Below, piece by piece: positions 1 through 9,892 of a DNA stretch of 64,000 nucleotides. How positions within the stretch are numbered: the stretch's first letter is position 1; each line of letters opens with the position of its first letter. This DNA is from Natronospirales bacterium (lineage in GTDB: Bacteria; Pseudomonadota; Gammaproteobacteria; Natronospirales; REEB76). The stretch covers positions 1-64,000 of the forward strand of contig JAKAXB010000006.1 in the NCBI GenBank assembly GCA_021816765.1, read 5' to 3'. The notes beneath the pieces were generated by a model, which made no database searches, was not told the DNA's origin, and was given only the letters and a program-made list of their open reading frames with translations. A program made the translations under genes and the position numbers.

Positions 1-398
1 ACAACAATACGCTTTATCTGGCGGCGTGGGTTCTCTGGTGAGCGCCGGGGTGTCAGACGCAGGACGTGCCGGTACGCGGTATCTTTCGTCATAGCAAGGG
101 CGCAAAGATTGATGAGGCTATCGCATCACACCTCCTGAGTCCGGCGGCAGGACCAATGCCAGGGGAAATCGACAAGCCAGGAGAGGTGCGAAGCACCGCG
201 GCAAGAAGCCCATAATGGCCGCAGCGGCCGTAGCCAGCGTCCGCAGGCCCGTGCCCTGGGCGTAGCGTCACTGTGGAGGGGGCGCGCAGTGATCGCGCCC
301 GAACGCAGGACAGTCGTGGCGAAAAGAGTGATCGTCGTGGGATGGGGGGACGGGACGCTTGAAGCGTACCGTCCATGCCGAGTCCGGCGACGCTATCG
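1..398 (-). mobile_element. Non-coding end of an IS110-type element (partial, runs off the left edge)
   Basis: No convincing gene is present. Three short blocks recur in the same order and orientation in the non-coding leader of the IS110-family element at 8463-9892. They are acaagccagg (172-181 and 9639-9648), cagcggccgtagc (222-234 and 9680-9692) and gcgacgctatcg (387-398 and 9881-9892). Sequence similarity stops after 398 and 9892, which suggests the element border. The recombinase start in the intact copy lies about 230 bases inside the first block, so here it would fall outside the window. Whether this copy is intact or a solo remnant cannot be seen. Confidence 0.5.
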
Positions 399-8389: not shown

Positions 8390-8462
8390 GTAGTTGGCGC
8401 ATAACAAGAACTTTGGACAAATATGGAAGCAGTATTCAAGCGATGAGATTCTATGGTTTTGG

Positions 8463-9407
8463 TCAAGCTGCGATGGACGTGGAGTCAAAGCGCGTTTCAT
8501 GTTTGTGGAGGGCATAGGCGACGCGCAGCAGTTTGCGAGCGAGTACGACCAATGCGGCCGTGGAAGACAGACCCTTGGCGCGCTGGCGTTCGTAGAAGGG
8601 TTTCCACGCAGCGGTTTTGGCGGCACTCATGGCTGCGTTATAGAGCAGGCGGCGCAATTCTGCTGGGCCGCGCTTGGACAAGCGACGGCGACCGCGCCGC
8701 TGACCGGAGTCGCAGGGCCGTGGGTCGAGGCCGAGATAAGCGATAACGGCGTCACTGCGCGGGAAGGACACGCGGGAGAATAGTTCGGTGAGGGCAGCCC
8801 CCGACAGTGGCCCGATGCCGGGGATTGAGCGCAAACGTGCCCAGCGTGTAGTGCCTTGCGGCAGCGCGCGGACGGCGCGCGGCAGCTCACGATCCATGGC
8901 GGCAAGAAGGGCATCGAGTTGGTTCAAAGTGGCGTCCCGCTCCACCGACAAGATATCGAGGCCGGCGAGGCTGGCCCGCAATAGGCCCTTGGCCACCACG
9001 ACTTTGGCGCGGCGTTTGAGCAGTTGGGTCAGGCGATCTTGGGCCGGGGTCGGCGGCTGCCAGGGATGCAAGCCGACATGCTCCTGGGCCAAGTAGCGGG
9101 CCAACACGGCCGCATCGACTCGATCGGTTTTGGCGCGGCGTCCTACGGCCTTGGCATAGTGGCGGACATCGTGAGGGTTGAGCACGTAGACGGTAATCCT
9201 CCGTGCGTGGGCGTGGTGGGCCAGTAAACGGTGGTAGTCGCCAGTGGATTCCACCCCGAGGTGGACGGCCTCCGGCAGGGCAGCGAGCCAGGCGTCTACG
9301 GCAGCGGGCGCATTGACACACCTCGTCACGCCGGCTTGGCCGAAGACGGCGGCTACGAGTTCGTGTTTAGCCACATCGACACCAATGTAACTGGGTTGGG
9401 TATTCAT
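8463..9407 (-). CDS. IS110-family DEDD recombinase (transposase)
   Basis: The 314-residue enzyme has the N-terminal RuvC-like domain with acidic residues in GVDVAKHE, GVESTGDY and KTDRVDA. It also has the C-terminal Tnp domain with the helix-hairpin RSIPGIGPLSGAAL and the serine motif RRRLSKRGPAELRRLL. Family enzymes are guided by a bridge RNA made from the element's non-coding end. I chose ATG 9407, preceded by gagg five bases upstream; longer open sequence upstream is out of family. The frame is intact, so it may be active. Confidence 0.93.
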   Translation of the reverse strand: MNTQPSYIGVDVAKHELVAAVFGQAGVTRCVNAPAAVDAWLAALPEAVHLGVESTGDYHRLLAHHAHARRITVYVLNPHDVRHYAKAVGRRAKTDRVDAAVLARYLAQEHVGLHPWQPPTPAQDRLTQLLKRRAKVVVAKGLLRASLAGLDILSVERDATLNQLDALLAAMDRELPRAVRALPQGTTRWARLRSIPGIGPLSGAALTELFSRVSFPRSDAVIAYLGLDPRPCDSGQRRGRRRLSKRGPAELRRLLYNAAMSAAKTAAWKPFYERQRAKGLSSTAALVVLARKLLRVAYALHKHETRFDSTSIAA

Positions 9408-9599
9408 GGTTGCCTCGTGCAGGTGCAGAATAGTAAAGGTGTCGGGGTGGCCACCTCCGATCGCGTGAGCTTGCAACGTAATCGGCGCTCGCACATTGGC
9501 GCTAGATTCCTCATCGACGCTGAACGAGGTGGAATGGGGAGAGTACTCGTCGAGTGGGTCCAGCTCACGCCGGCCCATGCCAGGGAACGTCCCTCCACC

Positions 9600-9892
9600 C
9601 CGGCGCTTCGGTATACACCCAAGCGCTGGGTGAACCATACAAGCCAGGGAAGCGCGAGGCGAAGAGCCAAGGGATGCCCCAGCGGCCGTAGCACAGCGCC
9701 CCCCGTCGGGGACTTGGCCCCAAAGGTCCACCTTGTCCCAGGGTCGTCCCCCTCCGGCCGACGAACGCCGGGCCTGCCGCAGAAAGAGGAATACTCGTCG
9801 CGGGAGCGAGTGGCCGGGACGCCGGCCTGCCTGTGCGGGTCCGCACGCAGACAGGGACCGTACCAGCCGTCACGAGCGACGCGACGCTATCG
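9600..9892 (-). ncRNA. Candidate bridge RNA region of the IS110 element
   Basis: IS110-group elements transcribe a structured RNA from the leader upstream of the recombinase. On the minus strand this leader shows several hairpins. One pairs ctgcgtgcgg with ccgcacaggcag near 9820-9855, and caccca/tgggtg with a five-base loop lies near 9616-9632. Short blocks are conserved in the second leader copy at 1-398, as expected for a constrained RNA. The exact ends and the target- and donor-binding loops cannot be assigned by eye. Confidence 0.45.

What the first reader, a model, noticed from the sequence alone, without database searches (positions are those of the whole stretch)
9408..9892. Probable bridge RNA in an intact-looking IS110 element
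The recombinase keeps its acidic RuvC residues and the serine motif of the Tnp domain. The 485-bp leader upstream is non-coding, hairpin-rich and partly conserved in a second copy. IS110-group recombinases use an RNA from this position to choose target and donor DNA. Defining the two loops would give the target specificity of this element.
Basis: partly seen in the sequence, partly recalled or inferred. Interest (0 to 1): 0.6.

Follow-up and report, generated by a model that had tools for sequence, protein, structure and literature searches.

The report
IS110 bridge RNA aimed at repeats
This is an intact-looking jumping gene of the IS110 family with a recognisable guide (bridge) RNA in front of it, and the guide can be read: it points to the 3' end of a small mobile repeat scattered in this genus, in which the element sits.

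Summary
The bridge-RNA call is right, but the coordinates are not. The 485-bp leader contains two things. Only 9408-9641 (-) belongs to the IS110 element, which runs 9643-8446 with CT cores. The outer half (9644-9892), with a 5-bp tail at 8441-8445, is the repeat into which the IS inserted: a dispersed ~242-256-bp mobile sequence, absent from the orthologous empty site in a congener.

A covariance model built only from distant relatives finds 9640-9430 (-) as its single hit in the window (76 bits, E 1.5e-21). Four helices, two at the target loop and two at the donor loop, show compensatory changes. Target guides TTCCCTGGC (left) and CGACGAG (right) fit the true target TTCCCTGG-CT-CATCG with one mismatch in the right guide. 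Across 17 elements each guide fits its own target far better than swapped ones (0 of 100,000 permutations). Donor guides covary in two relatives. The RE-LE circle junction would build a promoter, TTGACC-17-TATGGT. Catalytic residues are intact.

This is a new member of a known kind (IS621-like). Most relatives target REP-like sequences; this lineage is aimed at a different mobile repeat. How that repeat moves (no target duplication, NNNGA downstream) is unexplained.

The parts
8446..9643 (-). IS110-group insertion sequence, 1196 bp counting one CT core
   Evidence: Termini shared with 25 related elements: LE CT-TGTATG, RE CATAGAAT-CT
8463..9407 (-). IS110 recombinase CDS, 314 aa, catalytic residues D11 E53 D95 D98 S234
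9642..9643 (-). CT core, left junction
   Evidence: Alignment of element ends; CT is the IS621 core
8446..8447 (-). CT core, right junction
9408..9641 (-). Left non-coding end (LE) of the IS, holding the bridge RNA
8448..8462 (-). Right non-coding end (RE), 15 bp, CCAAAACCATAGAAT
9430..9640 (-). Predicted bridge RNA region (model match; the transcript probably starts near 9627-9632, its 3' end is unknown)
   Evidence: cmsearch with model R2, built without this lineage: 76.2 bits, E 1.5e-21, only hit in the window; helices with compensatory changes
9579..9587 (-). Left target guide, TTCCCTGGC
   Evidence: Equals the left target half TTCCCTGG plus the C of the core; own-versus-swapped test
9546..9552 (-). 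Right target guide, CGACGAG (6 of 7 against CTCATCG; 7 of 7 in both sister copies against their own targets)
9504..9512 (-). Left donor guide, GAGGAATCT (pairs over GAATCT with the right end ATAGAATCT)
   Evidence: Conserved; covaries in L177, where RE is ATAGGATCT and the guide GGGATCT
9470..9476 (-). Right donor guide, TTGCAAG (GCAAG against CTTGT of the left end)
   Evidence: Conserved; covaries in L007, where LE is CTTATATG and the guide ATAAG
9532..9600 (-). Target-binding loop: outer stem 9600-9595 with 9537-9532, inner stem-loop within about 9577-9556
   Evidence: Helices 1 and 2: 100% and 83% of cells paired
9463..9520 (-). Donor-binding loop: outer stem 9520-9517 with 9466-9463, inner stem 9502-9499 with 9488-9485
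   Evidence: Helices 3 and 4: 98% and 92% of cells paired
9634..9639 (-). -10-like TATGGT; in the excised circle it would lie 17 bp from TTGACC of the right end
   Evidence: TTG-17-TATG(G/T)T kept in 23 of 26 elements
9644..9892 (-). Dispersed mobile repeat, 5' part; not part of the IS; its last bases CTTCCCTGG are the left half of the IS target
   Evidence: empty site in G005
8441..8445 (-). Last 5 bp of the same repeat (CATCG), right half of the IS target

Best explanation
Window 9643-8446 (-) is an IS110-group (IS621-like) element whose left end encodes a bridge RNA in 9640-9430. By analogy with IS621, the excised circle joins RE to LE, completes a promoter (TTGACC-17-TATGGT) and transcribes the RNA. 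The target loop then pairs with the 3' end of a dispersed mobile repeat (TTCCCTGG-CT-CATCG), and the donor loop pairs with the IS's own ends (ATAGAAT-CT-TGTATG). The recombinase exchanges the strands at CT. Shown here: the boundaries, the target and empty site, the conserved structure, the guide-target and donor covariation, and intact catalytic residues. Inferred: transcription, RNP assembly and present-day activity.
For: Model from relatives only: E 1.5e-21, single hit in 64 kb. Structure: 93.1% of cells paired against 80.1% shuffled, 46 double-change cells against 13.6 shuffled, slid versions 32-48% paired. Own guide against swapped guides: mean 6.9 of 9 against 4.6 (left) and 6.9 of 7 against 5.0 (right), 0 of 100,000 permutations, also with one element per lineage. 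Sister copies covary with their own targets: C4 TTCCTTGGC with TTTCCTTGG, CGATGAG with CTCATCG; G006 CGACGAG with CTCGTCG. Donor covariation in L177 and L007. Junction promoter. Catalytic residues.
Against: The window's own right guide has one mismatch to its present target, and its donor guides pair over only 5-6 contiguous bases. A single guide match in the window is modest against shuffled leaders (880 of 20,000 for the left 11-mer); the case rests on position and comparison. No transcript data. The RNA fold of this leader alone is weak (z -1.9).
Confidence: 0.92

Rival explanations
1. The structured leader is only a regulatory 5' UTR (with or without antisense RNA) that controls recombinase translation, as described for ISPpu9, and is not a guide.
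For: ISPpu9 has a long structured 5' UTR and two small RNAs that affect transposase expression (PMC8450116); the RNA here also abuts the start codon.
Against: A regulator need not match the insertion site. The loops track each element's own target and own ends. The two roles can coexist.
Confidence: 0.05
2. The whole 485-bp leader 9408-9892 is one bridge RNA or left end.
For: It is continuous and hairpin-rich, and the repeat folds strongly as RNA (z about -3).
Against: The outer part occurs without an IS at many sites. Relatives' left ends begin at CT-TGTATG. The model matches only 9640-9430.
Confidence: 0.02
3. The dispersed repeat is a mini-element of this IS, moved by its recombinase and carrying its guide RNA.
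For: Repeat and composite insertion share the same outer ends, exact insertion and the same right-flank G. I held this view for part of the work.
Against: Free copies have no bridge RNA match (G005: nine complete copies, no hit). They lack the IS termini and a shared CT core, and their insertion sites share no left half. The IS boundaries lie inside the repeat.
Confidence: 0.04
4. The leader is coding: the frame is open from 9731, so the conservation is that of an N-terminal extension.
For: The ORF 9731-8463 exists.
Against: Relatives' left ends differ by lengths that are not multiples of three. Changes follow base pairing. IS621 aligns from residue 5 of the 314-aa form.
Confidence: 0.01

Closest known systems
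IS621 and its bridge RNA (IS110 group; PMC11208160, PMC11208158)
   Same: DEDD RuvC plus Tnp serine recombinase, bridge RNA in a long left end, target loop then donor loop, CT core, promoter rebuilt at the RE-LE junction
   Different: The target is the 3' end of a genus-specific mobile repeat instead of an E. coli REP; the recombinase is distantly related (E 3e-28 over 306 residues); expression and activity are untested here
REP-inserting IS110 elements of Pseudomonas, such as ISPpu9 and ISPa11 (PMC1525189, PMC8450116)
   Same: They insert at a fixed point of a dispersed repeat; several relatives fetched here target REP-like GCG-CT-CCCAC sequences
   Different: A different repeat family, with guides changed accordingly
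seekRNA of IS1111 and IS110 elements (PMC11187229)
   Same: A non-coding region gives an RNA with short sequences matching both strands of the target
   Different: IS1111 types carry the RNA downstream and have subterminal inverted repeats; neither is seen here

Membership tests
IS110 family, IS110 group | Recombinase with DEDD RuvC-like domain (PF01548) and Tnp domain with conserved serine (PF02371) | tested here: met
   Both domains above cut-off; D11 E53 D95 D98 S234 aligned to IS621
IS110 family, IS110 group | Long left end upstream of the CDS, short right end | tested here: met
   LE 234 bp, RE 15 bp
IS110 family, IS110 group | Short core shared by both junctions | tested here: met
   CT at 9643-9642 and 8447-8446; the IS-free repeat reads TTCCCTGG-CT-CATCG once
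IS110 family, IS110 group | Conserved RNA structure with a target loop followed by a donor loop | tested here: met
IS110 family, IS110 group | Loop sequences complementary to own target and own ends | tested here: met
   Target: 0 of 100,000 permutations. Donor: short matches with covariation in two relatives
IS110 family, IS110 group | Promoter rebuilt at the circle junction | tested here: met
   TTGACC-17-TATGGT by sequence; 23 of 26 elements. Activity not tested
IS110 family, IS110 group | RNA transcribed and bound by the recombinase; scarless excision as a circle | not testable with these tools
   Needs small-RNA sequencing, binding and PCR assays
IS1111 group | Long right non-coding end carrying the RNA | tested here: not met
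   RE is 15 bp; the RNA match is upstream of the CDS

The most novel reading that the evidence does not exclude
The repeat that hosts the IS is a non-autonomous mobile element of an undescribed kind. It has fixed ends (CGATAGCG...CTCATCG) and near-identical copies, and it inserts exactly with no target duplication at N|NNNGA. It also acts as a landing hub for more than one IS110-family lineage, each at a different point of it.
Probability: 0.3. Interest if true: 0.6.

Novelty: new member of a known kind. Interest (0 to 1): 0.38.

Why it matters
It gives a complete, testable guide/target/donor set for a natural IS110 lineage whose target differs from its relatives' REP-like targets, that is, a natural case of retargeting by guide change. 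It also shows a trap for leader-based annotation: half of a 'non-coding leader' can be the target repeat. The repeat itself, moving with no target duplication by an unknown agent, is the more open question.

Tried and rejected
Rfam had no match at E 1 for the leader and nothing above chance for the repeat. The repeat as an IS110-derived mini-element was my own intermediate view; it was rejected on relatives' boundaries, absence of the RNA in free copies and absence of a shared core. A TTGA direct repeat at both ends as target duplication was rejected: the empty site already reads TTGAGCTTGA. RAYT/Y1 transposases as movers of the repeat: present in 7 of 11 genomes, but no repeat ends lie in the loci fetched around them, so neither supported nor excluded. 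The plasmid and viral collections gave no close relative.

Full report
What was checked. The minus strand of 8463-9407 encodes a 314-aa IS110 recombinase. IS621 and ISCro4, both with solved structures, align over residues 5-310 (E 3e-28 and 5e-27). The IS621 catalytic residues D11, E60, D102, D105 and S241 (PMC11208158) fall on D11, E53, D95, D98 and S234 here, and these are invariant among the relatives aligned. The second copy in the genome (G000:C4) is 86% identical but has an in-frame stop shortly after its ATG (read), so the window copy is the only intact-looking one of this lineage found there.

The leader is composite. A search with the leader alone found dozens of dispersed copies of its outer part in congeneric genomes, without a recombinase. 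In G005 eight of them were aligned and nine complete ones were found in all: a 242-bp repeat with sharp ends, CGATAGCG...CTTCCCTGGCTCATCG, 99-100% alike, in unrelated sites. The orthologous site of the window insertion is empty in G005, and five G005 repeat insertions have orthologous sites without the repeat in other congeners. Four of these join exactly with no duplication; the fifth (C19b) is too diverged to judge. For a while I read these repeats as IS110 mini-elements. The distant relatives settled it: they end with CATAGAAT-CT on the right (ATAGGAT-CT in L177) and begin CT-TGTATG on the left, with small variants in L005 and L007. In the window these landmarks fall at 8446 and 9643, inside the repeat, five bases before its 3' end. 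Two other copies of this lineage (G000:C4 and G006:C85) lie at the same point of other repeat copies. A fourth, in G006:C76, lies at the corresponding place but has lost its bridge-RNA stretch and has a broken CDS.

The RNA. Sixteen left ends were aligned. RNAalifold gave 25 pairs, 12 of them with compensatory changes. Twenty pairs in four helices were counted against controls: 93.1% of cells paired (80.1% shuffled), 46 double-change cells (13.6 shuffled), and slid versions at 32-48% paired. The order is target loop, then donor loop, as described for IS621 (PMC11208160). A model built only from 12 relatives outside this lineage found 9640-9430 (-) as the only match in 64 kb (E 1.5e-21) and found the two sister copies.

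The target guides. Directly after the outer stem of the target loop lies TTCCCTGGC, which equals the left half of the target up to the first base of the core. On the 3' side lies CGACGAG, which pairs with CTCGTCG. The present right half is CTCATCG, one mismatch. The sister copy in C4 has TTCCTTGGC and CGATGAG and sits in TTCCTTGG-CT-CATCG. The G006 copy has TTCCCTGGC and CGACGAG and sits in TTCCCTGG-CT-CGTCG. Over 17 elements own guides beat swapped guides in all 100,000 permutations for the left guide, the right guide and both, and again with one element per lineage. Close relatives share ancestry, so the thinned run is the fairer one. The match of a single window guide against its own shuffled leader is only modest (880 of 20,000 shuffles for the 11-mer), so the case rests on position and on the comparison across elements.

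The donor guides. GAGGAATCT and TTGCAAG fit the IS ends over short stretches. In L177 the RE has ATAGGATCT and the guide GGGATCT, and in L007 the LE has CTTATATG and the guide ATAAG, so both sides change together. The G006 copy, with CTTATTATGG, does not keep the fit.

Promoter. Joining RE to LE as in the excised circle gives TTGACC-17 bp-TATGGT. The TTG and the 17-bp spacing to TATG(G/T)T hold in 23 of 26 elements; L005, L173 and L178 depart. IS621 is transcribed from such a junction promoter (PMC11208160). Expression here is inferred.

Target use. The pattern TTCCYTGGCTCRTC occurs nine times in 11 congeneric genomes, always at the 3' end of a G005 repeat. IS elements that insert into REPs, ISPpu9 and ISPa11 among them, were described in 2006 (PMC1525189), and several relatives fetched here sit in REP-like sequence (GCG-CT-CCCAC). 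This lineage reads a different repeat. That is a new target for a known kind of system, not a new mechanism.

The repeat. It carries no transposase in the copies seen and has no Rfam match. Its right flank has G at +4 in 23 of 25 sites (binomial 3e-11 at p 0.28) and A at +5 in 16, with nothing clear on the left. At G005:C19:66217-67853 another IS110-family recombinase (348 aa) sits inside a repeat copy at positions 65-67. How the repeat moves is open. In a sample of 39 related genomes leader-like sequence was found only within the genus.

Limits. The ends of the transcript, binding and activity are not shown. E-values from the model are rough by the tool's own statement. The genomes are draft assemblies, and several repeat copies in G006 are cut by contig ends.

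Noticed in passing
L085, L092, L096, L099, L101, L104, L107, L110, L113 (G005): Nine near-identical 242-bp repeats with fixed ends, exact insertion without target duplication (four empty sites), and G at +4, usually A at +5, of the right flank; the mobilising enzyme is unknown.
   Followed up: partly
window 175-398 (-): A diverged copy of the same repeat (67%). The same left flank (TTGACAGGCATTT) precedes repeat copies in G007 (L089) and G006 (L125), so this insertion looks ancestral in the genus.
   Followed up: partly
L131 (G005:C19:66000-68200), 218-1854: A second IS110-family recombinase (348 aa) lies inside a repeat copy at repeat positions 65-67; L116 (G005:C10) seems to show a further case. 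The repeats may be landing sites for several IS110 lineages.
   Followed up: partly
L012-L015 and L027 (Methyloversatilis thermotolerans): Related IS110 elements sit in tandem arrays of roughly 121-bp repeats built of REP-like GTGGGAGCGG...CCGCGAT units.
   Followed up: no
L181 (G002:C75): Another IS110 with a bridge RNA match (E 6.4e-37) in the same genus but with a REP-like left flank and an apparently broken CDS, so the genus holds both target types.
   Followed up: partly
L006 / L111 (G006:C76): A copy of this IS in the repeat that has lost nearly all of its left end and has stops in its CDS; its right repeat tail reads CATCA.
   Followed up: partly
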